Assembly: GCA_020091685.1 (NCBI GenBank)
Contig: CM034602.1
Span: 420,051-484,050, forward strand
DNA length: 64,000 nt
Reading direction: 5' to 3'
DNA from: Lutjanus erythropterus
Lineage: Eukaryota > Chordata > Actinopteri > Lutjaniformes > Lutjanidae
Below the pieces are notes generated by a model. The model did not search any database. It saw only the letters and a program-made list of their open reading frames with translations, and was not told where the DNA came from. How positions within the stretch are numbered: position 1 is the first letter of the stretch; every line of letters starts with the position of its first letter. Shown here piece after piece: positions 6,431-64,000 of this stretch. The position numbers were made by a program, and so were the translations under genes.

Positions 6431-6435
<5 letters not shown>

Positions 6436-6500: not shown

Positions 6501-6501
<1 letters not shown>

Positions 6502-6509
6502 GTATGAGT

Positions 6510-8287: not shown

Positions 8288-8291
8288 TTAC

Positions 8292-8519: not shown

Positions 8520-8523
8520 CTGA

Positions 8524-8716
8524 GACAGGCACAGAGAGGACAGAGGACAGAGGACAGAAAGGACAGAGGGGACAGAGGACAGAAAGGACAGAGGACAGAG
8601 GACAGAAAGGACAGAGGACAGAAAGGACAGAAAGGACAGAGGGACAGAGGACAGAAAGGACAGAAAGGACAGAGGACAGAAAGGACAGAAAGGACAGAGG
8701 GGACAGAGGACAGCTT
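8524..8716. repeat. GGACAGA minisatellite upstream of crystallin copy 2 exon 2
   Basis: More than 20 copies of GGACAGA/GGACAGAAA directly abut the exon 2 acceptor. Copy 1 has the same tract in only two to three units at 1795-1818 (AGAGAGGACAGAGGACAGAG), so this array is a lineage-specific expansion of the acceptor's polypyrimidine tract. Confidence 0.9.
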
Positions 8717-9194
8717 TAGATGTTTGATTTCTGTCTGATGACATCATCAAATTAAGGAGACAGCTGATTGGTTCAGATGTTAAATCAACATATCCACAGG
8801 GTGAAGTTGAAAGTGTGCTGTCGATATCAGAGCTGTCGTGATGTCAGATTATGAAGGACAAAAGAATTCTGGGTAACGGTGTTTTCACAATTAGAAGATA
8901 GAAATAAAAATTAGAAATATTAATAAAAATAATATTATAATAATGTTATCAGTCACATTCATCTATAAGAATCTATAAACATCTATAACTGTGTTTACTG
9001 GGTATTTTGTCAAATGAAATCAATCAATGAATCAATATTATTGACGCAGTCTGATCAGATGTGTATCAATAACATGGATTCAATATTTCAGTTGTCATCA
9101 ATACAGGAGATTACAGAGTCATGTGACCTGTCAGCTGACCTCACAGGTGAGTGTGTGATGACATTTGGAAGGAACGATGCATGCTGGGACTTAC

Positions 9195-9224: not shown

Positions 9225-9290
9225 GTTGGATCTGTTGGATCTGACAGACGGAGGCTAAGTGACTGTCACACCTGTGTGAGCTCAGTTATA

Positions 9291-9635
<345 letters not shown>

Positions 9636-29400: not shown

Positions 29401-32400
29401 GTCCTCTGTGTGCAGAGACATGAACACAGTCAGCAGATGATCATGGACAGAACTGAGGCTGCAACTAATCATCAATTACTTATTAATTAAAACAATTAAT
29501 CAATTATAGTTGTTTATCTATAAAATGTCAGAAAATGGTAGAAAATAGATCCAAACATGAAAAGAGGTGGAACGTTTTCATGTTTGGATCTATTTTTCAA
29601 CTAGTGATCAATCAGGTAATAACTTTTCCTCTAATCTGACCTACTTTTAAATTTGCAAAAGTGAGACGACGTTAATTAAACAATGAATCATTGAGTCATT
29701 TTTTTAAAGATAAAATTCTCTGATCTCAGTTTCTTAAACGTGAATATTTTCTGGTTTCTTTACTCGTCTGACAGGAAACTGAAGATCTGAGTTGTGAACT
29801 TCAGATGTAAAGTATGTGAGACGTTTGTCTTTCTGTCTGCAGCCCGGAGGGGACAGCAGTGAACCCGTCTCCTCACCGTGTCTCCCAGCCGTCACGTGTC
29901 CGGCTGCGGCCTCGTCCTCGCTGTTGTCCTCGGGGCCGCAGCCGCTCTGTGCCGATGGCGTCGGTCTCCACCTCCTCATGTCTTTACAGGTGGTGAACGG
30001 AGGGACTGGAGGAGGACAGAGACGTCACAGGTCAGGAGACTGATCATCTGAAAATGATGATGATGATGACGAAGACTTCACTCACCGTGTCGTTTGCTTT
30101 CGTTCACTTTGCTGACGAGGAGGACGGCCTTCTGATCGACTCCCATTCTGTCTTTGTTGGTGCCAAACAGCTTCTTCATGTATTTTTCTACGAGGCACAG
30201 AAACACGTTGGGATGAAGAATGTATTGATATATTTGATCATTATCATTTTTAATCTCTAAAATTGTTCTGTGTTAGAAAACAGACAAGAATTCACAACTT
30301 CAAACTATTAAACATGTTCAAATCCTTCAAACATTCAAACTAACATCTGCTGACAACACAGCTGTAAAAATCTGATATTATAATCATCTTTGTATTAAAC
30401 TAGGTTTTCTATAAAAAAAAGTTGGTCCTTTAAAGTTAAAGTTGTGTCCCAGATGATTTAATCAGGCATACAAAGGGTCAGCTATACCCTAAGGACCCCT
30501 GTCTCACTTCCTGGTTTAAAAAAAGACAAGAATACTGTTCAAACTCTGGAAAACTTTATATTTTTAGACAAATTCATTCTATAACATTTCTATCAGATGT
30601 GTCTCAACTATCATCCAACAACAGTAGTCATGGCGACAGCCTCTTTCTCTCTCTGCAGCTCACCTGTGGCGGCACTGATGTCATCATCTGAGCTGCTCTC
30701 TGTACAGCCAATCAGAGGCAGGTTGTAGGACAGGATGTCCTGGAAGAGCTGGTTTCCAGTCAGAGTGCAGTTCCTCATGTGCTGCCTGCAGAGCAGAGGA
30801 GCAGCGACGTGTTACATAACCATACATGATGACATATACAGAGCAGAGCGCCGACCAACACGTTCTCACCATCTGCAGTCGTCGTCGTTGCAGGTTCCTG
30901 TGAGGTCGAAGCGACAGAAGCGTGTTGCAGGTTGGATGGTGTTGCTGTAGGTCACAGAGCTCAGGGACAACTTCTCCTTGGTCCTGTAGTACGGACTGAA
31001 CCTGAAACACACATCAGACAGTTTCCTGACATTTTATGACCAGAACAACTGATCGATTAGTGGAAAAATTATTATATGATTATAGGTCCAAACATGTGAA
31101 AACAGGTGGACGTCCACGCACTCCACCTGTTTTCACGTGTTTGGACATATTTTTCAATTGACAAGATAACAAGACAAGCAGTTCAGAAAAAAACAGCCAG
31201 CTGTCATGGATCAATATGGACCTGTATGATCTGAAGACCAGCAGAGGGCTGTGATAGGGTCCAAAGGGAACCGGCTTCAGGTCCAAGCTCCCTGATTGGC
31301 TCGTGGCTGCGTCCACCTCCACAGTCACCACCTGCGGGGACAGAAGAAGAAGACACTGACCATCATGAATTATTTAGTCTAACAGCAGGTTTCAGATGTA
31401 AAAACTAAAATATGATGTGAAACTGCTTTTACTGAGTCTCAGTGTGAGTCAGAGTGTAAAGGACAAACACGACAACACAGACAAATAAAGGTTGATGGAA
31501 AACACCTGTGCAGGTGCAGGTGGGGGTTTGTCACCAGGCTCTCCCACACTGTGCAGCTCCCTCAGCAGCAGCTCCCCCAGCCGAGGCTGCTGCTGGTCCC
31601 TCAGCCTCAGAGTGTCCACGTCCAGTCCTGCAAACATCTCAGCAGGAGGTCTGGAGCCAGAGGAGGAGGAGGAGGAGGAGCTGGGGGGGGACTTGGAGGA
31701 GCTCTGATCTTTAGCTGGAGTGGAGCTGAGCTGCTCCAGGTTGGGTTTGGTGAAGGAGGAGCTGGACTGACGGAGGGAGTGTCTGCGTGGCCGTTTGGCT
31801 GCAGCAGCAGGAGCAGCAGGAGCAGCAGGAGGAGGAGGAGGAGCAGGAGGAGCAGGAGCAGGAGCAGCTTCTGGCTCTTGGTCGTCTGTCTCGGGGACAT
31901 CTTCACTGTCCAAGGTGAGTTTGTCCTGGGTGAGGTCATGCAGGGAGGGCTGCGGCAGAGGAAAGGAGGTGGAGGAGGGAGGCGGATCGGGAGGAGTGGA
32001 GGCGCGTGCAGGAGGCTCAGAGGACACGTCTGAGAGGAGGCCTTTGTTACGGAGGGCCTGCGCCTCCTTCAACTTCTGGATCTTCAGGGCGTACTCCGAC
32101 TCCAGCTGCTGCAGACGCTGCTTCTGAGCCATCAGCTCCACCAAGTGACGCTCTGATCCTCCAGCCGGGACGCCGTCCACACGCTGCAGCTTACTGGGCT
32201 GAGAGGGGACGACAGAGGAGGGGACAGAGAGGGGACGACAGAGGGGGACAGAGGGGGACGACAGAGGGGGACAGAGGGGGGCAGAGAGGGGATGACAGAG
32301 GGACAGAGGGGATGACAGAGAGGGGACGACAGAGGGGGACAGAGGGGGACGACAGAGGGGACAGAGGGGGGAGAGGAGAGGGGATGACAGAGAGGGGACA

Positions 32401-35400
32401 GAGGGGATGACAGAGAGGGACGACAGAGAGGGACAGAGAGGGGACGACAGAGAGGGGACGACAGAGGGGGCAGAGAGGACGACAGAGGGGGCAAGCAGAG
32501 AGGACGACAGAGAGGGGACAGAGAGGGGATCGACAGAGGGGGGGCAGAGAGGGGACAGAGAGGACAGAGGGGGATGACAGAGAGGACGACAGAGAGGGAC
32601 AGAGAGAGGGGACCACAGAGAGGGACGACAGAGGGGGCAGAGAGGGGACAGACAGAGAGGACAGAGAGGGGACGACAGAGAGGGGACAGAGAGGACCAGA
32701 GAGGGGGCAGAGAGGGACCACAGAGAGGGACAGAGAGGGGACGACAGAGAGGGACAGAGAGGGGACGACAGAGGGGGCAGAGAGGGGACCACAGAGAGGG
32801 CAGAGGGGACAGAGAGGGACAGAGGGGACGACAGAGAGGCAGAGAGGGGACGACAGGAGAGGCAGAGAGGGGACGACAGAGAGGGACAGAGAGGGGACGA
32901 CAGAGAGGGGACAGAGAGGGGACAGAGAGGGGACAGAGAGGGGACCACAGAGGGGACAGAGGGGCAGAGAGGGGATGACAGAGAGGGACAGAGGGGGATG
33001 ACAGAGAGGACGACAGAGGGGACAGAGGGACGACAGAGGGGGACAGAGGGGCAGAGAGGGGATGACAGAGAGGGACAGAGGGGGGATGACAGAGAGGGAC
33101 CACAGAGAGGGGACAGAGAGGGACAGGACGACAGAGGGGGACAGAGGGGGAACGACAGAGGGGACAGAGGGGGCAGAGAGGGATGACAGAGAGGACAGAG
33201 GGGGATGACAGAGAGGGACTACAGAGGGGGACTACAGAGGGGGACAGAGGGGGCAGAGAGGGATGACAGAGAGGGACAGAGGGGATGACAGAGAGGGGAC
33301 GACAGAGAGGGGACAGAGAGGGGACGACAGAGAGGGGCTACAGAGGGGGCAGAGAGGGGACGCACAGAGGGGCAGAGGGGACGACAGAGAGGGACAGAGA
33401 GGACGACAGAGGGGCAGAGAGGGGACAGAGAGGGACAGAGGGGGATGACAGAGAGGGGACCACAGAGGGGACAGAGAGGGGACCAGAGAGGGGACGACAG
33501 AGGGGGCAGAGAGAGGGGACGACAGAGAGGGGACAGAGAGGGGACTCAAGGAGGGGACAGAGAGGGGATCGACAGAGGGGCAGAGAGGGGACTACAGAGA
33601 GGGACAGAGAGGGACCGACAGAGAGGACAGAGGGGACGACAGAGGGGGTGAGAGGGACTCCACAGAGAGGGGCAGAGAGGGGACAGAGAGGGGACAGAGA
33701 GGGGACTCCACAGAGAGGCAGAGAGGACTACAGAGAGGGGCAGAGAGGGGACGCACAGAGGGGACAGAGAGGGGACGACAGAGAGGGGACAGAGAGGGGG
33801 ACAGAGAGGGGACAGAGAGGGGACGACAGAGGGGGACAGAGGGGCAGAGAGGGGATGACAGAGAGGACAGAGGGGGGATGACAGAGAGGGGACGACAGAG
33901 GGGGACAGAGGGGGACGCAAGAGGGGGACAGAGGGGCAGAGAGGGATGACAGAGAGGGACAGAGGGGGATGACAGAGAGGGACGACAGAGAGGGGACAGA
34001 GAGGGGACAGAGAGGGGACAGAGAGGGGACTACAGAGGGGGACAGAGGGGGACGACAGAGGGGGACAGAGGGGCAGAGAGGATGACAGAGAGGACAGAGG
34101 GGGATGACAGAGAGGAATGACAGAGGGGGACCCAGAGGGGGACAGAGGGGGCAGAGAGGGGATGACAGAGAGGACAGAGGGGGGGGAGACAGAGAGGGGA
34201 CGACAGAGAGGGACAGAGAGGGGACGACAGGAGGGACCGACAGAGGGGGGCAGAGAGGACGACAGAGGGGGCAGAGAGGGGAGGACAGAGAGGGGACAGA
34301 GAGGGGACCCACAGAGGGGGCAGAGAGGGGACAGAGAGGACAGAGGGGGGATGACAGAGAGGGGACGAAGAGAGGGGACAGAGAGGGACGACAGAGAGGG
34401 AGATCATGGGGGCAGAGGACGACAGAGAGGGGACAGAGACGACAGAGAGGACAGAGAGGGAGCGACAGAGGGGGCAGAGAGGGGACGACAGAGAGGGACA
34501 GAGGGACTCGACAGAGAGGGGACAGAGAGGGGACTGACAGAGGGGGCAGAGAGGACTACACAGAGGCAGAGGGGACAGAGAGGGGACAGAGAGGGACCTA
34601 CAGAGGCAGAGAGGGGACGACAGAGAGGCAGAGGGGATCGACAGAGAGGGACGACAGAGAGGGACAAGAGGGGACTGACAGAGAGGGGACAGAGAGGGGA
34701 CAGAGAGGGGACAGAGAGGGGACTCCACAGAGGGACAGAGGGGGCGACAGAGGGGGACAGAGGGGGGCAGAGAGGGGATGACAGAGAGGGACAGAGGGGA
34801 TGACAGAGAGGACGACAGAGGGGGACAGAGGGGGGACGACAGAGGGGACAGAGGGGGCAGAGGGGATGACAGAGGAGGGACAGAGGGGATGACAGAGAGG
34901 GACTCACAGAGAGGGGACAGAGAGGGGACAGAGAGGGGACCGACAGAGGGGGACAGAGGGGACGACAGAGGGGGGACAGAGGGGGCAGAGAGGGGATGAC
35001 AGAGAGGGACAGAGGGGGGATGACAGAGAGGGGACTTACAGAGGGGGACGACAGAGGGGACAGAGAGGGGGCAGAGAGGGGATGACAGAGAGGACAGAGG
35101 GGGATGACAGAGAGGGGACCGACAGAGAGGGGACAGAGAGGGACCGACAGAGAGGGGACGACAGAGGGGCAGAGAGGGGACGACAGAGGGGGCAGAGAGG
35201 GGACCGACAGAGAGGGGACAGAGAGGACGACAGAGGGGGCAGGAGAGGGGACAGAGAGGACAGAGGGGGATGACAGAGAGGGACGACAGAGAGGGACAGA
35301 GAGGGGACGACAGAGAGGACCGACAGAGAGGGACGACAGAGGGGGGCAGAGAGGGGACAACAGAGAGGGGACAGAGAGGGGACACAGAGAGGGGACAGAG

Positions 35401-38400
35401 AGGGACGACAGAGGGGGCAGAGAGGGGCGACAGAGAGGGACAGAGAGGGGACCCGACAGAGAGGGGACAGAGAGGGGACGACAGAGGGGGCAGAGAGGGG
35501 ACTGACAGAGAGGGGCAGAGAGGGGACAGAGGACAGAGAGGGACGACAGAGAGGGGCAGAGGACCGACAGAGAGGGGCAGAGAGGGGATCGACAGAGAGG
35601 GACGACAGAGAGGACAGAGAGGGGACCACAGAGAGGGGAGAGAGGGGGACAGAGAGGGGACAGAGAGGGGACGACAGAGAGGGGACAGAGAGGGGATGAC
35701 AGAGAGGGACGACAGAGAGGGGACAGAGAGGGGACAGAGAGGGGTTAGGAGGTAAAGATTATCAGCTCTGCAGACAATTTGATATTTTATATTATATGTT
35801 TGTTTATAGGAACATAAGGCAGGATTATTTGCAGACCATATATTAATATTTTTAAAACAGTTTAACTAACATTTTCCAAAAATAAAGAATTATGGAAAAT
35901 ACTCAGGATACAAAATTAATGCCACAAATTTGGTCAATAAATTACTATGATTTATACAGAAGTTTGATGTCATGCAGAAACTTTTTCTCTTTATATAAAA
36001 GAAAAATGGAAAAGGAGTTGAAGGAACAAATAAGTGAAGAAGAATGGTTTAATATTTGTGGAACACGGTTCACGCCCACCAGCTCCAGGATCTGGACAGA
36101 ATTCAACTGAAAAATATGGTCAGATCTTTCATAACTCCAAAGATCAGGAGGAAGTGGTGTCAAACCATGTGGACACATGAATGTAGATCATACACATATT
36201 CTGGTCTTCCCAAAAGATAAAAGGATACTGGAATAAGATACGGAGGGTTTAAGAAAAATAATAGAATATGAGATACTCAAAACATGCAAAATACTTTACT
36301 TGGAAAATTTGACACAAGACAAAGTACAAAAGAGGATGAGTACTTTGTTAAAAGTACTGTTTACAGGTAAAAAGCAACTACAAGATTATAGTATGAAGTG
36401 GAACCAGCGACTGAGGAGCAGTGCATTATGGGAGAGATATTTGTGATGGAGAACTGAGATTACTGAGATCCAATGAAAATGGAAAAATGGACTGATTATA
36501 AGAGGACACCACCACCAACACTGGACAGTAAAGACTGACACAAGGACAACTGTTTGATGATGTAAGTATGTTATACCTGAAAATGTAAATGAAGAAGGAA
36601 AATTTCAATTAAAAAAAAGTTTGTTTCTGGTCCATTAAATATAAAGTGCTGTTATCAGACTGTTACAGTCATTTAATCAACTGTTAATCAGCACCAACAC
36701 CTTCACTGTGGTGCTACTGAACCATGCTAACAACAGGCTAACAACGCCGCTAATGACACGCGCTAATGACACGCTAACAACAGGCTAACAACACGGCTAG
36801 TGACACGCAACAACAGGCTAACAACACAGCTAATGACACGGCTAACAACACGCTAATGACACGGCTAACAACAGGCTAACAACACGCTAGTGACATGGCT
36901 AACAACAGGCTAACAACACGCTAACAACACATAATGACACGGCTAACAACAGGCTAACAACACGCTAGTGACACGGCTAACAACAGGCTAACAACACGGC
37001 TAGTGACACGGCTAACAACAGGCTAACAACATGACTAATGATACGGTTAACGACATGGCTAGTGACACGCTAACGACACGGCTAGTGACACGCTAGCACG
37101 ATATGGCTAGCAACACGCTAATAACACGGCTAATGACATGGCTAATGACACAGCTAACAACAGGCTAACAACATGGCTAACGACACGCTAACAACAGGCT
37201 AACAACACGGCTAACAACAGGCTAACAATTGGCTAACAACATGGCTAATGACACGGCTAACAACAAGCTAACAACACGCTAATGACACAGCTAACAACAG
37301 GCTAACAACACGCTAACAACACAGCTAATGACACGCTAACAACAGGCTAACAACACTGCTAGTGACACAGCTAACAACAGGCTAACAACACGGCTAGTGA
37401 CACGGCTAACAACAGGCTAACATGACTAACGATATGTTAACGACAGGCTAACAACACGGCTAGTGACATGGCTAACAACAGGCTAACAACACGCTAACAA
37501 CACAGCTAATGACACGGCTAACAACAGGCTAACAACACGGCTAGTGACACGGCTAACAACAGGCTAACAACACGGCAGTGACACGGCTAACAACAGGCTA
37601 ACAACATGACTAATGATACGGTTAACGACATGGCTAGTGACACGGCAACGACATGGCTAGTGACACGGTAATGATATGGCTAGCAACATGCTAATAACAC
37701 GGCTAATGACATGGCTAATGACACAGCTAACAACAGGCTAACAACATGGCTAATGACACGGCTAACAACAGGCTAACAACACGGCTAACAACAGGCTAAC
37801 AATTGGCTAACAACATGGCTAATGACACGCTAACAACAAGCTAACAACACGCTAATGACACAGCTAACAACAGGCTAACAACACGCTAATGACACAGCTA
37901 ACAACATGCTAACAACATGGCTAATGATACGGTTAACGACATGGCTAGTGACACGCTAACGACAGGCTAACAACATGGCTAATGACACGCTAACAACAAG
38001 CTAACAACATGGCTATGACATGGCTAACAACAGGCTAACAACACGGCTAATGACACAGCTAACAACAGGCTAACAACATGGCTAATGATACGGTTAACGA
38101 TATGGCTAGTGACACGCTAACGATATGGCTAGCGACACGGCTAATAACACGCTAATGACACAGCTAACAACAGGCTAACAACATGGCTAATGACACGCTA
38201 ACAACAGGCTAACAACACGCTAACAACAGGCTAACAATAGCTAACAACATGGCTAATGACACGGCTAACAACAGGTTAACAACACGCATGACACGGCTAA
38301 CAACAGGCTAACATGGCTAATGACACGCTAACAACAGGCTAACAACATGGCTAATGACACGCTAACAACAGGTTAACAACACGCTAATGACACAGCTAAG

Positions 38401-41400
38401 AACAGGCTAACAACATGGCTAATGATACGGCTAGTGACACGCTAACAACCCCACTATTTTGCAGCAGCACCGTCACTACATCCTGGACTTAGCTCCGCCC
38501 CAAGACATTTGTGATTTGTTTAAAGAAACGCCAACAAGGCAGCGAGCAGGAAGTTCCTCCTGTATAACAGAATGTAGAGTCAGAGTTTTGTCCAGCGCTG
38601 GACACGTCTGACTGTTTAAAGTCTTTTACTCTCTCATATTTAAGGAGGAGGTGTCTGTCATCTCGTCTGTCAGCTCAGTTTTCATTCAGAGGTGACATCA
38701 CTTCCTGGTGCATAAACAGACTAGATGGATCTTTCAGCTGTGGTCGTCTGTCACAGAGGAACGATCTGAGAAGAACAGAAGGACAGAACGTGTCTCAAGT
38801 GTTCGTGTTTCTCACCTGCGTCTGGTTGGAGTCGGCGTCGTTTGGACCCTCTTCCTGCGCTCAGCTGAGCCTGAGTCACTTCCTGTTCCAACCGCACGGC
38901 CAGGCTCCTCTTCATGGAGACACGGTGTTCAACACGCTGCACCTGGGAGACAGACAGAGACACACAGAGGACAACCACAGGTCAGACAGAAACCACAGAA
39001 GTCACTACAGAATCTGATCTTACTCAAAGTTTCCATGACAGTAAAAATCATCTCTTCCTGTTCAGACGTGTTCCTAAACTCATCGCTGTGTTCGGTCTCA
39101 CACCACTGATTTTAACTTTACTTTTATAGTCCATTAATCTATTGACTGTTATTTTTTCAATTGGTTGATGAAAAAATATTGATCGGTGTTAAATAAAGTT
39201 TTGATCCTCAAATGTCTTGTTTTGTCCACAACTCAAAGATCTTCAGTTTCCTGTCAGAGAGGAAAGAAACCAGAAAATATTCATATTTCAGAAGCTGAAA
39301 TCAGAGAATTAGGACGTTTTATCTTAAAATAATGACTCAAAATAAGTAATTGTTTAATTAATTCACACTTTTTATTAAAAACGACTCAAACCGATCGATC
39401 GATTTTCTTTGTTTTTCCTGAAGGTAACACCGTGATGTGATGTTGGCACAAAGAGGGTCTTCCTGAATATTTAGGCGCCGACTCATGCTTGTTCCCACCT
39501 GTTCTGCAGCTTCTTGAGCAGCGTTCTGTTGGCGTGGACGATCTTCTGACGCCTGCAGCTGCTCTCTCAGTTTGGACACCTTCGCCTCAGCAGCCTTCAG
39601 AGACTCTCTCTTCTTCAGCTCCTGCTGCAGTAAATGTCTGAGACAGCCTCGTCCTCTGCAGCAGCTCCTGTCTCACACACAGACGGACAGACACACAGAC
39701 GGACAGACACACAGACAGACAGAGACACAGACAGACAGAGACACACAGTTAAACAGGTCTGCTCACAGTGACTGTTACGCCTACGCTGCAGCTTCATGAA
39801 GATTTATTCTCCTCTTTATCTTTCTGTCAGACAGACTTTTCTTTTACAGGAAACCACCATTAAATAAGACAAACATGTCTCTGAGAACAGAGGAGCTGTT
39901 GGTCTCTGCTGCCTCATCTGTTAGTGTGTTTGTGTTTGTGTGAGACTTTAGTGAATCTCAACTAAACCTTTAAAAACACTGAAGTCAATCAGTTATTCAA
40001 CATGTTTAATTAACAACAAACAGGTCAAATTAAATACTAATACCCAGTCAGTGTCTCACCCGAGTCAGCTGCCTCACCCAGTCAGTGTCTCACCCGAGTC
40101 TGAGAGTCTCACCCGAGTCTGAGTCTCACCGAGTCAGAGTCTCACCCAGTCAGAGAGTCTCACCCAGTCAGTGTCTCACCCGAGTCAATGCCTCACCCGA
40201 GTCTGAGAGTCTCACCCGAGTCAGTGTCTCACCCAGTCTGAGAGTCTCACCTGAGTCTGAGAGTCTCACCCGAGTCCGCGTCTCACCCGAGTCTGAGAGT
40301 CTCACCAGGTCAGTGTCTGACCCAGTCTGAGAGTCTCACCCGAGTCTGAGAGTCTCACCCGAGTCTGAGAGTCTCACCGAGTCAGTGTCTCACCCGAGTC
40401 TGAGAGTCTCACCCGAGTCTGAGAGTCTCACCGAGTCAGAGTCTCACCTGAGTCAGAGTCTCACCGAGTCAGAGTCTCACCAGTCAGAGAGTCTCACCCG
40501 AGTCTGAGAGTCTCACCCGAGTCTGAGAGTCTCACCCAGTCAGAGTCTCACCCAGTCTGAGAGTCTCACCGAGTCAGAGAGTCTCACCCGAGTCCGCGTC
40601 TCACCCGAGTTCGAGAGTCTCACCCGAGTCAGAGTCTCCTGAGTCTGAGAGTCACACCGAGTCTGAGAGTCTCACCCAAGTCAGAGTCTCACCCAGTCTG
40701 AGTCTCACCTGTGTTTGCTGAGTCTCACCCAGTCAGCTCACCCGAGTCTGAGTCTCAGTCAGTCAGAGAGTCTCACCAGTCTGAGAGTCTCACCGAGTCT
40801 AAGAGTCTCACCTGAGTTTGCTGAGTCTCACCCCGAGTTTGTTGAGTCTCACCTGAGTTTGTTGAGTCTCACCTGTGTTTGTTGAGTCTCACCCAGTTTG
40901 TTGAGTCTCACCTGTGTTTGTTGAGTCTCACCCGAGTTTGTTGAGTCTCACCTGAGTTTGCTGAGTCTCACCTGTGTTTGTTGAGTCTCACCCGAGTTTG
41001 TTGAGTCTCACCTGTGTTTGTTGAGTCTCACCCGAGTTTGTTGAGTCTCTCACCGTGTTTGCTGAGTCTCTGACCCGTGTTTGTTGAGTCTCACCCGTGT
41101 TTGTTGAGTCTCACCCGAGTTTGTTGAGTCTCACCTGAGTTTGCTGAGTCTCACCTGTGTTTGTTGAGTCTCACCTGTGTTTGTTGAGTCTCACCTGTGT
41201 TTGTTGAGTCTGAGCTCCGCCAGTCAGTTTGAGTCCAGCAGCTGACTTCACAGACAGATCAGAGTCAGAGGCAGCAGAGGAGGCGGAGCTCACACTGTTC
41301 TCCTTCAGCAGTTTCTGCTTCTCCTGCTGTCACACACACACACCGCACGACAGATTAGTGTGTGCGAACGTGATGTCACTGCGCATGATCAGCTGGTAGT

Positions 41401-41540
41401 GAGGGTGATTACCTGGCGATCTCCTCTTTAAGCAGTCGGTACTCGGTCTTCTTGGCTTCAGGTAGTGCCTCTAGAGTTCTGATCGGGTTGTTCTCCTTCT
41501 CACATCCTGACGCTGCTTAGGCTTCGCTGCCTGGAGGAGG

Positions 41541-41581
<41 letters not shown>

Positions 41582-41882
41582 GTCATCATCAGTCACATAA
41601 CGAGTCAGAGTCTCTGCTGCAGACGACAGCTCAGCTCAGTATTCTGATAAACATATTGTGTGTAGCAGCAGCAGGGTCAGCAGGTCAGCAGGTCAGCAGG
41701 TCAGCAGGTCAGGTGGTCAGCAGTCTGCTGGACTCACCTCGACCTCCGGCCTCTTTGATCATGAACTCCAGACCTCCCAACGCTGCCTGCTGTGTGGAGC
41801 TGCAGGCATCCATGTCCGAGTCAGAGTCGTCCGAGTCGTCAGAGAAACCACCACTGACTTGTGTCAGCTGACCAAGACAACA

Positions 41883-41920
<38 letters not shown>

Positions 41921-41977
41921 ACACACACACACACACACTACACTGAGCATTTTATCATCATCATCAGAGGTGTGTGG

Positions 41978-42053
<76 letters not shown>

Positions 42054-45000
42054 TCACCACCAGTGGGGCTCTGGCAGTGTGATGTCCTCTGAGAACTTGT
42101 TGGTTCTGGACTGGGACACGGTGTTCAGACTGACGGTGCTCAGGTTCCTCTGACTGGCTGCTGGACTCCTGCAGGAGGAGGACAGCTGGGACGAGGGCCG
42201 CTGGATGAGCTCTTCTCCTGCACACAGAGACAGACGAGGACATGTCCGCCAACAGAGACAGAGGAGCAGCTTCATGTGGACGAGATTCTGCCGTTTCAGT
42301 CAATGAGGACGGAACAATAAGTGACCAGAGACCTTTGACTTCATCACTGCAGAACCTCACAGGAGAACCGAGTGTGAAAGATCCTTTGAATTTCAGGGTT
42401 TCTACAAGTGTCAACAATTTATTTTAAGACCTTTCTGAATTTAAAATCTATTTCATGTCCATCCTGCCAACAAAAGAACACTGACAGTTTGCATTAATAT
42501 TCCCTGTTGTGTGCTGGGTTTGTTTTGTTGTATTGTGACAAAGTCAAATCCAACTGTATGAAAGTATCATTACCATCATAAATCTATTTTTCAGAATCAT
42601 ATTTTATACATTTTAAATTCTAAAAATCAGATTATTGGACGCCAGACGCTTGAAGGAGCTGCAGAAACCGTTTCCTCACAGTGTGATGAGACACAAACCT
42701 CAGCTGCTGCCACCCTTTATTGGCCATCGACATCAGACACGTCTCTCTCAGCAGCATCTCCTCCTCCTCCTCCTCATCAGCAAAGGGAGGTTTGGGAGGA
42801 GGTTCCAGTTCTTCAGGTGGAGGAGGGAGGAGGAGGTGGGGAGGAACGCCGGACAGCAGAGGGGAGAGGAACGGCTGAGAGAAATCCTGAAACACAACGA
42901 CAAGAGCTGAGTGTCACCGACAAACAACATCTGGACTCGACAGCTGCAGCTTCACTTCCTGAACTGACTCTCAAAAGTTTTTTCCACACGATCGTCATCA
43001 ATCATTTTGATCTAAATGGGAACATAAGTGAATAAAGACAAACTGTATCACAAACTTTTAAAATTAAGTTTCGTGGCCATATTTGTTGACTTTGAAACAT
43101 AAACTGTCAAATGAGACTGAAAGTGAAAATGAGTTTTGTTTCTGTTCATCCAGCAGAGAAAACATCAGACGTCAGTTTAGAGTTTTTAAAAATGCATCCT
43201 AAAGAAAGAAAAGTGCATCCTGGTTTATATGGGGACAATTCAACAAGATCAACATTTGTTCAACAACAACAGCTGTTCCTTTCAGGCTCTGACAGAGTTG
43301 GTTCTACGTTACTGAGATTCTTTCAAACTGATGAATTCAGTCGTCACTGCAGGTTTGATGTCACATTATATTCAGCTGTAAACAGAACGCACAGGAAACA
43401 CGATGCTGTCTGAAAAGTTTGTCTTCTTGGTGAGTAACAACATTTCTGCCACCCAGTAAATGACTCTGGAGAACATGAGAACGTGATCTGTTGTCTGAGA
43501 ATGTTCTGCAAGGGTCCATCCTTGGCCCTCTGCTGTCTTCAGTCTACATGTTCCTCTGAGTCAGAGGGACATGGTGTCCCATCACTGTTGTGCAGATGTT
43601 AAATGTCCCCACAGTCCAGTGGCTCCAGAGCTTTAGATCATCTTCATTCCTGCCTCACTGACTTAAGATGTTTTATGCCCCAAAATTGTAATTTTTGATT
43701 TGTTGTTTTATGCTCGTGTTAAACGTGTGGTCCACTCTTCCTTCTATCAGCTCAAAAAATCTCAAAGATAAGGTCCTTTTTGTCCTCTGCTGATTTGCAC
43801 AAAATTATTCACACTTTTATTTTTCTTGATTAGATTACTGCAATGCACTTCATGCTGGCATCAACCTGTTCTCCTCCATCGTCTCTAACTAGTACAAACG
43901 CTGCTGCTCAAATTTTAACAGGCACAAAAAAATTGACACATTACTCCGGTGCTTGTCGACCTACACTGGCTCCCGGTTTTAAAATTCTTCTGTTAACTTT
44001 TAAAGCATTGAACAGACTTGCTCCAAATTACTTGAAGGACTTCTGATCCCTGATGTGCCTCAGGGTCACTGAGGTCTATGGATGCAGCTCTCCTGATTGT
44101 CCCCAGATCCCGGATCCTGTCTAAAGGTGACCAGGCGATAGTCTCCTATCGAGATTAGACAGGCTGCTTCATTAGCTTCTTTTAAATCTTTGCTCAAAAC
44201 CTTCCTTTATAGGAAGGCATTTGCAAATTGCTAATTGAAGTCCATTGGTTTTTCCACACTGCTCTGGCCTTAACCTTCATCCCTGTACTTGTGACGTCTC
44301 ATGCATGTTTACCTGCATTTGCTTTTATTTTGTGTTGTTTCTTTCTTTGTTTCAGCTGCTCATAGTTTTTATTTTCTGTAAAGCACTTTGTAACTTTGTT
44401 AAGAAAAGTGCTGTATAAATAAAGTTTATTATCATTATATTCTATAATCAGTTAGAGAGTGGGGCGTACCATTCCAAACTGATGAGGTCCGTCACATAGA
44501 GAGACATGTGAGGGAAACATCCTGGATCGTCTGCGGTCAGCGGTGTGTGTGCCGGCGACGCCACTGAAACAATCAGAAGAAACATGTGTTCTCATTTGTC
44601 ACATCAGAACACAACATCAACAGTTCAAGAACAGGTGGAACTCACCTGAGACCCCGTCTCACTGTCTCGTATCCATGGCAACCTCATCATAGTTGTCATA
44701 CTGGTAGAGGTTCTCGAGGAGTCCAGACCCTGTTTGCCTGCAGACTTCCTGTGTTCTCGATCTCTGACTGAAGGACAGAGAGAACACACACATCCCGTCA
44801 CACTGAGTCTTCTTCTGTGGTGTTTGCACTAGGGTTGGGCAATTGGACACATGTATCGCTATCGACGATGGGCTGAATCCATCGCCGATTACTTTTTACC
44901 TGACTTTTAGGCGATATTTGTCATTTTATGTTGCTAATGTAACAGTGTGCAGAGTGACAGCCTCTGCTCTGCACCGCGCCTCATCCAGCAGCGCAGGACA

Positions 45001-46721: not shown

Positions 46722-49700
46722 AAACAAACCACACTTGTTACACATCACATGACCATGATGATGTCATCAATCCCACCTTGTCAGGAGAGATGACAGAGTC
46801 TCGCTGGAGGCTGATGATTCTCCCGACATGAACACATCTGCCTTCTCATCCGCTCCTCTTTGCAGCTCGACACGTCTTCTTCTCCGACTCTTCATCAGCT
46901 TTCTGTTCTGCCTCTGCTCCGTCTTCTTGTCTTCTTTCTTCTTCTTCACCTGGTCACAAACAGGAAGAGAAACCATACTTTCAAATGGGACTTAATAAAG
47001 AGAAAGTTCAGACTTTTCACCACTTTACCTTGTTGTCAGACAGACAGGAAACCACTGATATATAACACTAACATCACTTTACAAACCAACCAAACTCCAT
47101 TGACAAAATCAGTAATTTTATCTCACAGAACACAGTTGTTGGTCTGCTGCTGCCTCCATCTGTTAGTGTGTTTGTGTGATTGTGAGACATCAGTGTTTTA
47201 AAGGGTTAATTCAGATTCACTGAAGTCACACAACAACACAAACACACTAACAGATGGAGGCAGCAACAGACCAACAACTCCTGTGTTCTGTGAGATAAAA
47301 TTACTGATTTTGTCAATGGAGTTTGGTTGGTTTGCAGAGAGTGACGTTTGGCTCTGCTGTTCCAGAACAGGAAGCAGATTCTGACTCACCCTCCTTCTTA
47401 GCGTCCCCTCCTGTCTTGCTCCACCCACTTCCCTTCAGCTGTTCCAGGTTGAGGGGCGGCAGTTTCTGGCGCAGAGGTTTGATGTTGAACGCTGGAACAC
47501 TTTCTCTCGGCCTCCAGCTCAGATGCCGTCTGCACCAGGAGCCGCTTCAGCTACTGGTTTGGTCTCTGTAACACTGGCAGTGTGGTCGGGCCCGCTCTGC
47601 AACAGGGGCCCTCTGCCTCCAGGGCCATGGTCTCCTCTTCCGGATGCACTCCAGCTCCAGCTGGATCTGTTTATACTTGGACAGCAGGTCCTCGAAGGAC
47701 TCATCAACACTGCTCTCTAGAAACACTGTGAGGCGCTCTTGCCGCCGTCCTCCCCGCCATCTTCTCTGAGGTCACATGGTCAGGAAAGTAACAAATCATT
47801 CACCATTCATTAATCATCTAGTCCTGGGGTCCCTGAACTATTTCATGCCAAGTGACCCAAATAGTTTTACCTTTGCCTGGGGCCCCTGAAAGACGCTCTT
47901 TTAAACCTGTTGATAAGACTACAAAAAAAAACAACCACTTTAAAATATTAATTCTTTTTTAATGTTCAGTTTTTTCCCTTTTGACTAATCAATTAATCAT
48001 CTGATCACTCAGCTCCTCCAGTGAGGAGGAGACAGTGAGAAGGAGACAGAGGAGGACACAGTGAGGAGGAGACAGTGAGGAGGACACAGTGAGGAGGAGA
48101 CAGAGGAGGACACAGTGAGGAGGACACAGTGAGGAGGAGACAGTGAGAAGGAGACAGTGAGAAGGAGACAGTGAGGAGGAGACAGTGAGGACACAGTGAA
48201 GAGGAGACAGTGAGGAAGGAGACAGTGAGGAGGACACAGGAAGAGGAGACAGTGAGAAGGAGACAGTGAGGAGGACACAGTGAGAAGGACACAGTGAGGA
48301 GGACACAGGAGGAGGACACAGTGAAGAGGAGACAGTGAGGAGGAGACAGTGAGGAGGACACAGTGAAGAGGAGACAGTGAGAAGGAGACAGTGAGGAGGA
48401 CACAGTGAAGAGGAGACAGTGAGAAGGAGACAGTGAGGAGGAGACAGTGAGGAGGGCACAGTGAGGAGGACACAGCGAGAGGAGACAGCAGGAGGAGACA
48501 GCGAGGGACAGCAGAAAAGTGAAGAGGAGACAGTGAGGAGGACACAGTGAAGAGAGACAGTGAGGAAGGAGACAGTGGAGGAGGACACAGTGAAGAGAGA
48601 CAGTGAGAAGGAGAGGAGGAGGGCACAGTGAAGAGGACACAGCAAGGAGGAGACAGCGAGGAGGAGACAGCGAGAGGAGACAGTGAGGAGGAGACAGTGA
48701 GGACACAGTGAAGAGGAGACAGGAGAAGGAGACAGCGAGGACACAGAAGAGGAGACAGTGAGAAGGAGACAGTGAGGAGGAGACGAGGAGGAGACAGCGA
48801 GGAGGAGACAGTGAGGAGGACACAGCGAGGAGGACACAGCGAGGAGGAGACAGTGAGGAGGACACAGCGAGGAGGACACAGCGAGGAGGAGACAGCGAGG
48901 AGGAGACAGACACACTGCAGCTCAAACATAAAACTGTGCTGAGAACCTTCAGGGCTGCAACTAACAAATACTTTCATTATTGATCAATCTGTCAATCATT
49001 TTGTTGATGAATTGATTGGTCTATAAAATGTCACAGCTGTCACCGTCAGTGAAAAATACGTCCTCAGTATGTTTGGATCTATTTTATCTTCATTATGAAA
49101 CAATCGATGGCACATTTTCTCTGTATCTTGATTTGAACAAGAAAATTGGTCAAAAAATGTTAATAAATGTCGATCAATTGTCCTCAGATGTCTTTTGTCC
49201 ACAACTTAATTAAGAATTTGACTGCTATTCAGACGTTTAATGAAGCTCATCTAATGTTTCAAAAGTGTCAATTAATTTCCTGTTGATCGATTGATTCTCT
49301 TCCACTGACGCCACCTGTGCTGCTGAGGTCACAGAGCAGACAAGACAGGAAGTCGTCGTTCTGTAGGTTTTGTTTTCCTGTGAAACACGATGACACACTG
49401 CAGCTGAGGACTGTCATCCAGGATAAAAACCTTTTAATGTACCAGTCAAATGATCAATGAATGTTCACATCTTATCAATCACCCAATAGATTATTATTTT
49501 CTTGACTGATGAGAAGCAAATCTACCAGACAAATCCACTGCTGTGTAAAGAAACCAGAAAATATTCACATTTAACCAGCTGAAATCAGAAAATGTGAACT
49601 TTTTTCTTCTTAAAAAATGACTCAAATCAATCAACCAAAGTAGTTGGCCATTAATTTGATAATCGATTAATCGTTGCAGCTCTAATGAAGTTCATGAGGA

Positions 49701-59300: not shown

Positions 59301-62300
59301 CTCTGAACCACAGCCATGAGAGGAGCCGGTGGGCGTTCTCCTTCAGCGTCGGTGACCTCCGGTCCGTCACTGTGAAGGAGGAGGGTTGGACCTTCCTGGT
59401 CTTCAGACTGAAGGAGTCCACGTCCCTGCCGGCTCTGCACTTCCACCAGGGCGGCAGCACCGAGTTCCTGGACAGCCTGAGGAGGTTCGCTCTGCTCAGC
59501 GAGTGAGTACCACGACAACACAACAACAAACATATGGAAACACACAACTGATCAATTAGTGGAAAAATTATTGCCAGATTGATCATGAGTTGAAAAATCG
59601 GTGGAGCGCTCCGGCTGTTTTCACATGTTTGAACCTATTTTTCAATTGATAAGATTGTGACGGGGTTAATTTTTCATAAATATCTGATAATTTATTGACC
59701 AAACAACTAATAGACAATCAGTACTTTTTCAAACTATGAATACAATGAGATATTTTATCAATAATCCATATATTGACCTGTCCTCTGTACAGTTTGGTGG
59801 AGGCTGCGCAGATTTTGGTTGTTTGTGCTCAGAGGAACAATCAGTATTCTTTAATTGTTGTTCACTTGTGTTGTTTTTATGTTAAATTGTGTTAATTACA
59901 CACGTGCAGAGTGATTGTGTGTGTTGGTGTGTGTCGCCTCAGTGGACACATTTTATTAGCTCAGATTCTTGTGTCCTGAGGACGAGGACAGCGTCTCCTT
60001 GATCTCACAGCAGATAGCTGTTATTAAAGTTCTTATCGAAGACGCTCATAATGAAACCGTCTGCTTTAAGTACCGGATATTTTCACACGGTGACGTCTGC
60101 TGACCGCCTGCCTCCTGATTGGCTGCATCATCTTTTATTTACATGCAGCAGAGATCAAAGAAAAAGATGAGTGAAGATGTCGACTCACAGTGTCAGACCA
60201 CTGAGTCGCCGTCCATCTGTCAGTATGTCTCTGCTGGACGGCGACTTTTTACAGCTTTTATTGTGAAAAGCATCAACGCGATGAGAGCGCTGAGAGTGAA
60301 GCAGAGACACAAACACACCGACAGCTCAGATGATTAAAATACACATTTTAGACACTTTAAAATGTCTTTTTTCTCGTCTCATCAACAGTCCAGAACCCAA
60401 AGAGATCCAGTTTACTGTGATCAGACCAGAACATCTTCTTTCACTGAACCTGGGAACTGTGGGATATTTTGTTTTCTCTAAAAATGACTCCACATCATTA
60501 ATTGATCATCAAAATAACTGCTGGATAATTTTCTGTCAGTCGACTCACATCGCAGAAGTTCTTAAGGATCTGTTGTGCAGGAATAGAAACAGAGTTTGAT
60601 CAGATTTTTAAAGCCTATGTAGAAATGATTGGAACATTGTATTGATTTTTAGTGTCTAATTATTAAAATATAGACGTCATGACAGATGGAGGCTGACACA
60701 TTTCAGAAAAGGAAAATAAGAAAAAACATAAACTTTCAAGATTTTAACAACCTTTGTGGCCTCTCACGTAGAGATTTCTGAGTTTACGAGGTGCACCTGA
60801 ATGCACCATGAAGTCCCTGTCTTTGTGTGTTTGACACTCCACAGAGGTGTGGTGAAGATTTTATTTTTAACAAAAACTGTAAATTAATGGTTGTTTACGT
60901 CCGTTCATTGCTTAAGTCTGTTATGAAGCACTTATTATTTTTAAAAGTTTGATCTCAGCCTGTTCAGTCAGACAGAATTTAGTTTAATCTGAGTTTATGA
61001 AGCTGCTTTGTTTTTTTGTACATCATGTGTCTTTTCTCTAAATAAAGTGGGAGAAATGAAAAGTTTAAATGTTTTCCACATTTAAATTCTTCACTTTACA
61101 GGTCAGGCAGAGGAAAAGCTTAACATCAGACTCCTTTGCACTTAACTTTTTTAAAATTTTGCCCCTCTGAAGAAGTGATTGAGTAGAAAGACGTGCAATC
61201 AGGTGATTAATAAGAATGAGTATCAGCCAATAAGAACAAGAGCAACAGCTTTGATTTAAATCATTTGAATCAAAGTCAGTTCTCAGTTTGTCAGTCGAAT
61301 CATGTGACTTATTTTTTGAAAACAAACTTCCACCAGATAAACAGTCTGTCATTAATTGAAGTCAGAGAGAGTTGATGTGTGAATGTTGAATGTCAGTTTT
61401 TTGTGTTTTTAGGGCTCCGGATGATGAAACATGTCTGTTGGTCAGCACGCCAAACAAAGCTCTGTCTCAGTCCTTCGAGAACCTGCTGGATGACAACAAC
61501 TTCGGCCTCGTGCATGTAAGAAACTACAGCATGAAGATCTACTCTGTTCTATTCTTCTGTTTTTCAATTGACAGGATTGTGACAGGGTTAATTTTTCTAT
61601 ATTTTCTGGCAAAAAACAACTAATAAATTAGTGGAAAAATTATTGCCAGTTTAATCACTGGTTGAAAAATAGGTCCAAACATGTGAAATCAGGTGGAGCG
61701 TCCGTGCGTTCCACCTGTTCTCACATGTTTGGACCTATTTTTCAATTGACAGGGTGGGGCAGGATTAATTAATAAGCTGTTCTGCCGGTGCACAAAAGGA
61801 AAAAGTGAGTTTTGCTCCCTGGATGAACTCTGAGGAGCGAGCTGTGTGTTTGTCTCCAGCAGAAGTTCAGAAAGGACCCGTACGTCACCACGCTGGGCGG
61901 ATTCTCCAAAGTCACCAACTACATCTTTGATGCTTTCCGGGGCACAGAGGAGCAGCACCAGCGCCCCCCGGAGGAGGTGGCTGACCTACTGGGTGAGGTC
62001 ATCCCGGGACTGGAGATCAACCAGCAGGAGGAGCCGGGCTTCGAGGTCATCACCAGGGTGAGGCAACGCCACGTTAATATGTAACAACATTCATTTCCTA
62101 AACTGTTATCAAGATACACTGATTTTCTGTGATGGAGGGATGTGTTAGTCGTGACTGTGTGTGTGTGTGTGTGTCAGATCGACCTGGGAACGAGGCCTCA
62201 GGTGACCAGGAGGGAACCGCTGTCAGCAGACGACTGGACCAAACACCAGGACGCGGAGGGGAGGATGGTCAACATCACACACCTCAAACACGTCATCTTT

Positions 62301-63867
62301 AAAGGGGCAAGTTTGACTTTTTATTTATTTAGCCACTTTTTAAAACTGAAAGACCGTCGCCACCCAAATGACCCTTCACTAAGCCCCACCTCCAAACAGC
62401 AACAGTCCAATCATTGCTTAGCAACTGTAACTATAGCTGCCAAGCTTTCCATGTCCCTCCATGTTGAAGGTGTGCAGGACACACAACACATGTGAGGTGA
62501 ATGGATTAAACTCTGTCTTCATCCCTCTAACATAAGCAGCAAATGTTAGCATGTGTGGCTAACTAATGCTAGCTTTAACTTTACCTGCAGTCAAACTTGT
62601 CAGATCCCACTGCATCTGCATTTGTTCTGTGGGGGTTTGAGGAGGAGGATGTGGACTGATGAAGAGTCAAAGATGCGTCTCTCTCTGGCTCACTGTCTCA
62701 GGTCTGAGTCTGGTTAGCTTAGCTCTTATCCCGGCTCTCTTCCTGTGGTGATCGTGGTCCAGCTGGTCTGGCTGGGTGACCCGTCTCAAGGTCCGCTGCT
62801 CTAATCGAGTCCCTGCTCTTCCTTTTCCCACGTTAATGAGTGAATTTCTGTCATCTATCATGTAGATATACCTGCTGTATTTCACCATCTGACCAATGTT
62901 AGCTGAGATGTAAGCTAGCTTTAGCATCAGTCTGTTAGCATTAATGTTATATCATGTACGCAGCTGTTAGCTAACTTTACATAAACACTTTGACAGGGTT
63001 CTTGTTTTAAAACGTGTCAGATGGAAACATTAAAACATCAGCTGATTCAAGTCGAGTTAGCATTAGCATTAGCTTACATCAGTCAGCTACACTTATGAAA
63101 TCTGCTTGTGAGTCTTTATTTTAACGACAAAATCCACCATCATCAGCTGGACGTGAGAATCTGCTTTTGTTTAACTTCTATAAGGAATCACAGACATCAT
63201 GTTTCAACAAATACTGACAATTTTTTTAAGATGATTTTTTTGGGCTTTTGCCTTTAATTGGATAAAGACAGCTGAAGATATGACAGGAAAGGGGGTAAAG
63301 ACTGGAGGAATGACGTGCAGCAAATGGGTCACCGGTGGGATTTGAACCAGCGACCGCTGCAGAGGACCAACAGCCTCAGTACAGGGGACAAACGCTTTAC
63401 CAACTGAGTTATGGGAGAACTCCATACTGACAATTTTGATGTTAAATCTTCCGCCGTTCTCACTGTAAACTGAATAAATGCAGTGCAAGAATTGCAGCTT
63501 GTCAGATGCAGCAACAGTAACTCAGGAGGGGTGGGGCTTAGTGAAGGGCCAGGTCATAATAAAGCTTACCAATAAATCCTAGGAAGAGTTAATTTGTGCA
63601 TAAACAAACATTTCATCACCTTTTATTATCTGAACTTAAACTGATGAATTTATTGAGTGAACCTGATAAAAAATGACACATCATGTTTATCATGAGGTGT
63701 ATTTGATGACTCGGCATGTTTCTCATTTTGCGTGTGTGTTGTGTCGTGTCATGTGACTTGCAGGGTCTATGTCACGCCGTGAGGAAGGAAGCCTGGAAGT
63801 TTCTGTTGGGATATTTTCCGTGGGACAGCACGCTGGAGGAGAGGAAAGCTCTGCACAGAGCCAAAAC
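53362..63867 (+). CDS. tbc1d15: TBC1 domain family member 15, exons 1-9 (3' truncated by window end)
   Basis: Orthologue of TBC1D15, a Rab GTPase-activating protein (Rab7-directed, recruited to mitochondria through Fis1 and involved in mitophagy and lysosome-mitochondrion contacts). Nine exons are present: 53362-53385, 56096-56197, 57488-57562, 58505-58646, 59298-59502, 61413-61515, 61860-62057, 62178-62306 and 63764-63867. They join in phase without a single frame error. Exons 1-5 encode the N-terminal Rab-binding (DUF3548) domain, including FEHEGVFIHPSS, ETEWDMVNAVSFKKK and LPALHFHQGGSTEFLDSLRR. Exons 6-8 cover SQSFENLLDDNNFGLV, GFSKVTNYIFDAFRG and INQQEEPGFEVITRIDLG. Exon 9 begins the TBC domain with GLCHAVRKEAWKFLLGYFPW. 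The catalytic Arg and Gln fingers lie beyond the window. The ATG follows a good context (GCGACATGG). Confidence 0.95.
54657..54835 (+). mobile_element. tRNA-derived SINE, plus orientation
   Basis: A-box region TAGCTCATTTGGTAGAGCGT, B-box GGTTCGACTCC, body CCCTTTGCTGCGTCTCC and TCATATCTTCAGCTGTCCTA, tail AATTAAAGGCATAAAAGC. Best-preserved internal pol III promoter of the four copies. Not a tRNA gene: the insert between boxes is too long and acceptor pairing is absent. Confidence 0.8.
55064..55612. mobile_element. Inverted-repeat element (GACAGTTCACCC ends)
   Basis: Ends TGACAGTTCAACCCAAAATC (55064) and GGGTGAACTGTCCCTTTAA (55594-55612) are inverted. The sequence AGGGATAGTTCACCC at 58739-58753 marks another, truncated member. 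A common fish non-autonomous DNA transposon type; no transposase. Confidence 0.65.
56096..56197 (+). CDS. tbc1d15: tbc1d15 exon 2
   Basis: VIFEHEGVFIHPSSDEDAIE and QDLLVSGSLRIVDK; 34 codons, matching human IIYEQEGVYIHSSCGKTNDQ. Acceptor CACACAG, donor AAG|gtaaaa. Confidence 0.95.
56430..56990. repeat. Degenerate GGTTCT/AGAACC array in tbc1d15 intron 2
   Basis: About 25-30 occurrences of GGTTCT, AGAACC or AGAACCC at irregular 15-25 nt spacing. The overall pattern is palindromic: the first half is mostly in one orientation and the second half carries many GTTCT/AAGAACCCTT pairs. Non-coding. Confidence 0.75.
57488..57562 (+). CDS. tbc1d15: tbc1d15 exon 3
   Basis: DAEVVVEYRPLEDTVDPSNM then LCAGK; 25 codons, matching human DAEVIVDWRPLDDALDSSSI. 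Donor AAG|gtttgt. Confidence 0.93.
58070..58245. other. ACAACAAA low-complexity stretch in tbc1d15 intron 3
   Basis: Nearly pure A/C composition (ACAACAAAAC-type). ORFs on the minus strand (F/C/V runs) are compositional. An (ATC)n microsatellite lies at 57850-57878 nearby. Confidence 0.7.
58505..58646 (+). CDS. tbc1d15: tbc1d15 exon 4
   Basis: DSSSVMEWDQCSGERSHQLL and ETQQSYETEWDMVNAVSFKK then KSCTNGE; matches human DSSSVVEWTQ and SYEAEWDMVNTVSFKRK. Donor AAG|gtgagt. Confidence 0.95.
59219..59266. repeat. (GATGAC)n microsatellite
   Basis: GATGATGATGACGATGATGA-type repeat about 30 nt upstream of tbc1d15 exon 5. Confidence 0.9.
59298..59502 (+). CDS. tbc1d15: tbc1d15 exon 5
   Basis: SLNHSHERSRWAFSFSVGDL, RSVTVKEEGWTFLVFRLKES and LPALHFHQGGSTEFLDSLRR; matches human WSFLFSLTDLKSIKQNKEGM and LPALHFHQGDSKLLIESL. 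Intact. Confidence 0.95.
61413..61515 (+). CDS. tbc1d15: tbc1d15 exon 6
   Basis: APDDETCLLVSTPNKALSQS and FENLLDDNNFGLVH; matches human NKSLSQSFENLFDEPAYGLI. Intact. Confidence 0.95.
61669..61752. repeat. Foldback element in tbc1d15 intron 6
   Basis: AAATAGGTCCAAACATGTGA and TCACATGTTTGGACCTATTT are exact reverse complements around an internal TCAGGTGGAGCG loop region. Same family as 31080-31160. Confidence 0.85.
61860..62057 (+). CDS. tbc1d15: tbc1d15 exon 7
   Basis: QKFRKDPYVTTLGGFSKVTN, YIFDAFRGTEEQHQRPPEEV and LEINQQEEPGFEVITR; matches human QKIKKDPYTATMIGFSKVTN. The acceptor is TCCAGCAG, a tandem NAGNAG, so the leading Gln may be optional. Intact. Confidence 0.95.
62178..62306 (+). CDS. 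tbc1d15: tbc1d15 exon 8 (GC donor)
   Basis: IDLGTRPQVTRREPLSADDW and TKHQDAEGRMVNITHLKHVI then FKG; matches human IDLGERPVVQRREPVSLEEW. The donor reads AAAGGG|gcaagt, a GC-AG intron boundary, and joins in phase to GGTCTATGT of exon 9 (K-G-G-L). A short (TG)n tract (62158-62174) precedes the acceptor. Confidence 0.93.
63222..63416 (-). mobile_element. tRNA-derived SINE, minus orientation, in tbc1d15 intron 8
   Basis: Minus strand: AACTCAGTTGGTAAAGCGTT (A-box region), GGTTCAAATCC (B-box), TTGCTGCACGTCATTCC, TATCTTCAGCTGTCTTTATC and tail AATTAAAGGCAAAAGCCC. Full-length member of the family at 54657, 12905 and 16388. Confidence 0.8.
63764..63867 (+). CDS. tbc1d15: tbc1d15 exon 9 (start of TBC domain)
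   Basis: GLCHAVRKEAWKFLLGYFPW and DSTLEERKALHRAKT, donor AAC|gtacga. Contains the RKEAWKFLLGYFPWDS motif that opens the TBC Rab-GAP domain. The last annotated exon; the window ends about 130 nt later in the intron. Confidence 0.95.
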
Positions 63868-64000
63868 GTACGAACCTTCACTTTATCGCTCAGTGGCCAC
63901 TTTATTAGGAACACCTGAACACCTGCTCGTTAAGGCAGATATCTGATCAGCCAATCAGTGGACAGGAGTTCCTCGTAAAGTCGTCACTGTCTGTTTTCAT

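What the first reader, a model, noticed from the sequence alone, without database searches (positions are those of the whole stretch)
41858..42057. A 200-nt zfc3h1 intron whose ends are bridged by complementary (CA)n and (UG)n arms
Intron 9 consists almost entirely of a CA-rich arm of about 70 nt starting 5 nt after the 5' splice site and a UG-rich arm of about 54 nt ending about 25 nt before the 3' splice site, with a loop of about 40 nt. In RNA these pair into a long hairpin that places donor and acceptor side by side. Complementary AC/GU repeats at opposite intron ends have been reported in fish introns as a structural aid to splicing that can replace normal polypyrimidine-tract recognition; this is an extreme single-intron case inside an RNA-decay gene.
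Basis: partly seen in the sequence, partly recalled or inferred. Interest (0 to 1): 0.78.

Follow-up and report, generated by a model that had tools for sequence, protein, structure and literature searches.

The report
Fish intron bridged by CA/UG arms
A short intron in a fish RNA-decay gene has a CA-repeat arm after its start and a UG-repeat arm before its end that can zip together and bring the splice sites close; this looks like one more case of a known class of fish introns.

Summary
The minus-strand gene is teleost zfc3h1. The intron has a 71-nt (AC)n arm from +7 and a 55-nt (GU)n arm ending 16 nt before its end, around a 42-nt loop. It is predicted to fold into a hairpin of about 66-68 bridging pairs (MFE -122.3 kcal/mol, z -5.6). 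The flanking exons carry small frame changes, probably assembly errors.

The design matches the zebrafish (AC)m-(GU)n introns of Lin et al. 2016, known to me only through citing papers. In this gene AC tracts at intron starts and GU tracts at intron ends are common (11 of 12 tract ends in that polarity), but both in one intron is at the chance rate (1 seen, 0.97 expected). It is a good member of a known class; function here is untested. One unexpected point: the CA arm also matches the GU tract ending the next intron, and equilibrium folding shares it between the two, a geometry that could favour exon skipping.

The parts
41868..42057 (-). Intron of zfc3h1, 190 nt, corrected boundaries
   Evidence: Donor GTG|GTGAGG after RAPLV; acceptor TTGTCTTGGTCAG|CTG just before HKSVVVSL; homologues; AG positions
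41981..42051 (-). (AC)n arm, intron +7 to +77, 71 nt
41939..41980 (-). Loop, 42 nt, with four UGAU motifs
41884..41938 (-). (GU)n arm, 55 nt, runs of 22 and 31 nt with one interruption, ending 16 nt before the intron end
41883..41883 (-). Candidate branch-point A in UGAU, 15 nt before the intron end, unpaired in the predicted fold (speculative)
41868..41869 (-). Acceptor AG
42058..42203 (-). Upstream exon block (approximate start), with two frame changes
41738..41867 (-). Downstream exon, 130 nt, 5 nt short of LPRHK at its start and one further frame change
41543..41580 (-). (GU)n tract at the end of the next intron, rival partner of the CA arm

Best explanation
It is a teleost (AC)m-(GU)n intron. 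The CA-repeat arm just after the donor and the UG-repeat arm just before the acceptor pair once both are transcribed. The helix shortens the donor-acceptor distance from 189 nucleotides to a few steps and helps the spliceosome pair the two sites although the polypyrimidine tract is poor. Because the arms are simple repeats they pair in any register, so length changes in either arm do not destroy the pairing. Shown here: the arms, the boundaries by homology, the predicted fold. Inferred: pairing in the cell, help to splicing, lesser need for U2AF2.
For: Arms at both intron ends; fold energy z -5.6 and about 66-68 expected bridging pairs with 0-100 nt of flank; donor-to-acceptor path 3-10 steps against 189; loss of the fold when one arm is replaced, -26.9 or -12.6, and its return when both are exchanged, -114.6 and -131.8; most negative energy per nt of the 23 gaps folded, -0.598 against -0.547 to -0.096; weak polypyrimidine tract; AC-start and GU-end polarity in the gene, 11 of 12 tract ends, p 0.006; class described in PMC9024468 section 19 and in passages of PMC7404189 and PMC9198270.
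Against: Both arms in one gap is no commoner than independent arms predict, 1 against 0.97. Other GU-tract acceptors of the gene have no AC partner of 10 nt or more at their intron start. With flanking sequence the donor is mostly paired. By number of pairs between gap ends the next intron's gap scores as high, 60 against 58. The longer folds share the CA arm with the next intron. No expression, splicing or conservation data.
Confidence: 0.5

Rival explanations
1. Coincidence of two tolerated microsatellites. AC tracts are tolerated after donors and GU tracts before acceptors in fish introns; this intron happens to have both and the hairpin has no role of its own.
For: One-armed introns: AC at the start in 4 and GU at the end in 7 of 29 gaps, both in 1, expected 0.97, P of at least one 0.69. 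Another close CA/TG pair, 9290-9632, lies outside any intron that I recognise.
Against: Close opposite pairs are commoner in the window than random placement gives, 207 of 20,000 trials, though one is not intronic; the acceptor has a weak polypyrimidine tract.
Confidence: 0.34
2. The arms act as single strands that bind proteins: hnRNP L on the CA arm, TDP-43 or similar on the GU arm, and these set the splicing of the intron.
For: hnRNP L needs CA-repeat or CA-rich elements and can activate or repress splicing (passages of PMC7708053); TDP-43 binds GU repeats very tightly as single strand (passages of preprint PMC12697283).
Against: The arms are close and complementary, so pairing competes with binding; no binding data for this gene.
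Confidence: 0.1
3. The GU arm forms a pUG quadruplex instead of the hairpin.
For: One GU run has 15.5 repeats; 12 repeats suffice for a pUG fold (abstract of PMC12276007).
Against: Folding half-life in vitro is 13 min or more, which I take to be slow beside hairpin formation with a nearby complementary arm (inference).
Confidence: 0.03
4. The arm lengths, or their juxtaposition, are an artefact of the assembly.
For: Small frame changes in the flanking exons and in a crystallin exon, and 5 nt missing at the start of the downstream exon.
Against: Exons on both sides are in the expected order and the junction lies where the homologues place it, so the intron is real; only lengths are in doubt.
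Confidence: 0.03

Closest known systems
Zebrafish (AC)m-(GU)n introns (Lin et al. 2016, Genome Res. 26:12-23; paper not held, seen through PMC9024468 section 19 and passages of PMC7404189 and PMC9198270)
   Same: AC repeats near the donor, GU repeats near the acceptor, predicted hairpin that brings the splice sites together, unusually low folding energy, teleost gene.
   Different: No splicing or U2AF2 data here; another gene and an unnamed fish; a rival GU partner in the next intron.
CFTR intron 8 (UG)m tract and TDP-43 (named in passages and reference lists seen)
   Same: UG repeats close to a 3' splice site.
   Different: There the tract acts as a protein site and leads to exon skipping; no CA partner arm is mentioned in what I saw.
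Terminal inverted repeats of Hypoxylon sister stwintrons (PMC9024468 section 19)
   Same: Intron ends bridged by a predicted stem.
   Different: No AC/GU repeats in them according to that section; fungal; removed in two splicing steps.

Membership tests
(AC)m-(GU)n intron class | AC repeats near the 5' donor | tested here: met
   71 nt from +7
(AC)m-(GU)n intron class | Matching GU repeats near the 3' acceptor | tested here: met
   55 nt, ending 16 nt before the intron end
(AC)m-(GU)n intron class | Predicted fold across the intron that brings the splice sites together | tested here: met
   About 66-68 bridging pairs, path 3-10 steps against 189; but longer folds share the CA arm with the next intron
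(AC)m-(GU)n intron class | Folding energy 50-100% lower than conventional introns of the same length (as put in PMC9024468) | tested here: inconclusive
   -0.598 kcal/mol per nt against -0.547 to -0.096 for 22 other gaps of the gene; these are not matched in length or species set
(AC)m-(GU)n intron class | Splicing does not need U2AF2 | not testable with these tools
   Only a weak polypyrimidine tract is seen
(AC)m-(GU)n intron class | Splicing depends on pairing of the arms | not testable with these tools
   Needs minigenes
pUG fold RNA | 12 or more GU repeats | tested here: met
   GU runs of 11 and 15.5 repeats
pUG fold RNA | Quadruplex formed | not testable with these tools
   The folding program does not model it; the CA arm competes

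The most novel reading that the evidence does not exclude
A repeat-arm switch. The CA arm of this intron has two rival GU partners: its own, and the 38-nt GU tract that ends the next intron, where the match runs on past the repeats from this donor into the neighbour's acceptor region. Pairing with its own arm splices the 130-nt exon in; pairing with the neighbour, for example when a GU-binding protein covers the near arm, bridges this donor to the next acceptor and skips the exon. Repeat lengths and GU-binding proteins would then set exon inclusion. In folds of 527-1001 nt the arm is shared, 38-39 pairs to its own and 30-32 to the neighbour; with the near arm blocked the neighbour takes 38.
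Probability: 0.08. Interest if true: 0.55.

Novelty: new member of a known kind. Interest (0 to 1): 0.27.

Why it matters
If the hairpin works, it is a clean natural test piece for structure-guided splicing: long simple arms, a short intron, a weak polypyrimidine tract and a rival partner one exon away. It also warns that where such tracts are common, paired arms can meet by coincidence, so function must be tested and not read off the fold.

Tried and rejected
Acceptor at 41858 (reader): rejected, it cuts into conserved HKSVVVSL. Acceptor at 41854, which I first took from reading frame: rejected for the same reason; folds made for it were redone for 41868. Decayed gene copy as the cause of the frame changes: disfavoured because a crystallin exon near 1.7 kb also changes frame (seen by eye against the recalled family sequence), but not excluded. 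Uniqueness within the gene: rejected. PDB searches did not help to name the gene. Pfam scan of six open frames gave no family. Lin et al. 2016 and a companion review are not held. Literature searches answered; none listed a paper on this intron, and I make no wider claim. Orthologous introns could not be compared.

Limits. The splice-site tables in the script were recalled, so I cite pyrimidine counts instead. Exon blocks are approximate: 8 homologues of the 120 listed, 31 blocks, 30 gaps, 1 gap under 60 nt dropped, 29 counted. One search folded the 23 of 29 gaps of 60-1000 nt. The polarity test counts 12 tract ends as independent, the focal intron giving two of them. The pattern fitted 55 of 120 listed homologues; the shorter one fitted 117 of 120 (P0109, P0114 and P0117 lacked it). 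The hits are mostly fish by name, but not all: P0130 is named as donkey.

Full report
What is there. The window's minus strand carries a teleost zfc3h1 gene. Fish proteins named zinc finger C3H1 domain-containing protein match it, an exon at 30.9-31.0 kb matches Pfam zf-C3H1, PF10650, and tblastn with eight of the listed homologues gives 31 exon blocks from 50.5 to 20.6 kb. The finding lies in the ninth gap of that list.

Boundaries. Reading frame alone led me to 41854. Both are wrong. Homologues read NLSTVSLNTV...RAPLV followed by LPRHKSVVVSLNDSDDSDSDMDAC; 55 of the 120 listed fit the long pattern and 117 of 120 hold LPxHKxVV, 57 of them right after APLV. The window encodes RGHHTARAPLV up to the donor GTG|GTGAGG at 42057, and HKSVVVSL from 41863 on, so the acceptor must lie upstream of 41863. 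The only AG between the GU arm and that point is at 41869-41868. The intron is 41868-42057, 190 nt. The exons around it do not read in one frame: changes lie near 42146, 42090 and 41843, and the start of the downstream exon is 5 nt short of LPRHK. A crystallin exon 40 kb away also changes frame. I read these as assembly indels; the arm lengths carry the same doubt.

Anatomy and fold. The intron has a 71-nt AC arm at +7 to +77, a 42-nt loop and a 55-nt GU arm at +120 to +174. Its minimum energy is -122.3 kcal/mol; dinucleotide shuffles average -96.1 with sd 4.7, z -5.6, 0 of 200 as good. About 66-68 bridging pairs are expected with 0-100 nt of flank, and the path from donor to acceptor falls from 189 to 3-10 steps. 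Controls: 5' arm turned to UG, -26.9; 3' arm turned to CA, -12.6; arms swapped, -114.6; UG at 5' and CA at 3', -131.8; length changes of -20 to +10 nt in either arm, -85.5 to -150. Against a simple picture: with 30-100 nt of flank the donor -3 to +6 is mostly paired.

Splice signals. At -25 to -5 the acceptor is 52% pyrimidine with a longest run of 4 in the last 60 nt. Of 13 other modelled acceptors, 11 have 62-86% and two with GU tracts have 48-52%. A UGAU with an unpaired A lies 15 nt before the intron end and four more lie in the loop; which one is the branch point is not known.

Is it special? In 29 gaps between exon blocks, tracts (10 nt or more in runs of three or more units) occur as AC at the start in 4, GU at the start in 1, AC at the end in 0, GU at the end in 7. 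The polarity, 11 of 12, has p 0.006; both arms in one gap, 1 seen, 0.97 expected, P of at least one 0.69. So the placing of arms by intron end is real in this gene, but their meeting here needs no special cause. With 29 gaps the test is weak. In the window 15 CA/TG tracts form 2 close opposite pairs, more than random placement gives (207 of 20,000 trials reach 2); the second pair, 9290-9632, lies between a crystallin copy and the end of zfc3h1, where I recognise no intron. By energy per nt the focal gap is the most extreme of the 23 folded; by number of pairs between the two ends it has 58 and the next intron's gap 60. The runner-up in energy, 46951-47372, holds an unrelated 77-nt inverted repeat.

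Second partner. The CA arm is also complementary to the GU tract at the end of the next intron: 41531-41580 with 42014-42063, 50 nt, 90%, running past the repeats; the duplex scores -93.6 kcal/mol. Folds of 527, 647 and 1001 nt around both introns share the CA arm, 38-39 pairs with its own GU arm and 30-32 with the neighbour's, and are better by 24-41 kcal/mol than with the neighbour's tract blocked. With the near arm blocked the neighbour takes 38 pairs. Transcription order favours the near partner (inference), but the far pairing has exon-skipping geometry and can be tested.

What is known. Section 19 of PMC9024468 (read) describes zebrafish (AC)m-(GU)n introns after Lin et al. 2016: AC by the donor, GU by the acceptor, energies 50-100% lower than conventional introns, splicing without U2AF. 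Passages of PMC7404189 and PMC9198270 agree. The original is not held; I recall, from no call, that its abstract puts such introns in about a tenth of zebrafish genes. CA repeats as hnRNP L sites: passages of PMC7708053. GU repeats as TDP-43 sites: passages of preprint PMC12697283. Slow pUG folding: abstract and passages of PMC12276007.

Verdict. A well-formed new example of a known class, with the 3' boundary corrected and function untested. Interest is low to moderate; the shared arm is the one point I did not expect.

Noticed in passing
42146, 42090, about 41843 and 41864-41867, minus strand: Small frame changes in the exons next to the intron relative to fish homologues; others near 46612 and 39546. 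Probably assembly indels.
   Followed up: partly
about 41507-41530, minus strand: At the start of the exon after the next intron the frames of AAKPK and ASGCEKENNP differ, and one choice of acceptor gives an in-frame TAA.
   Followed up: partly
9290-9632: A second close CA/TG pair, (CA) tracts of 36 and 51 nt and a 188-nt TG tract, in no intron that I recognise.
   Followed up: partly
1168-1958 and 6077-8743, minus strand: Two gamma-crystallin-like gene copies; one exon matches Pfam Crystall, and both copies show frame changes by eye. In the first, a CA tract follows what looks like the donor.
   Followed up: partly
47077-47339: A 77-nt inverted repeat, 88% complementary, with a second 62-nt pair inside, in another zfc3h1 intron; it is the second most stable gap per nt.
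   Followed up: no
32211-35744, 36726-38449, 40042-41211, 48019-48909: Long minisatellite arrays inside zfc3h1 introns.
   Followed up: no
41868-42057, donor side, in homologues: Some homologues lack the residues just before LPRHK that others have, such as P0026 and P0028 against P0025: another donor or a difference of annotation.
   Followed up: no
61827-62081 and 63710-63943, plus strand: Open frames that look like TBC1D15 exons (recalled resemblance; the Pfam scans found no family).
   Followed up: no
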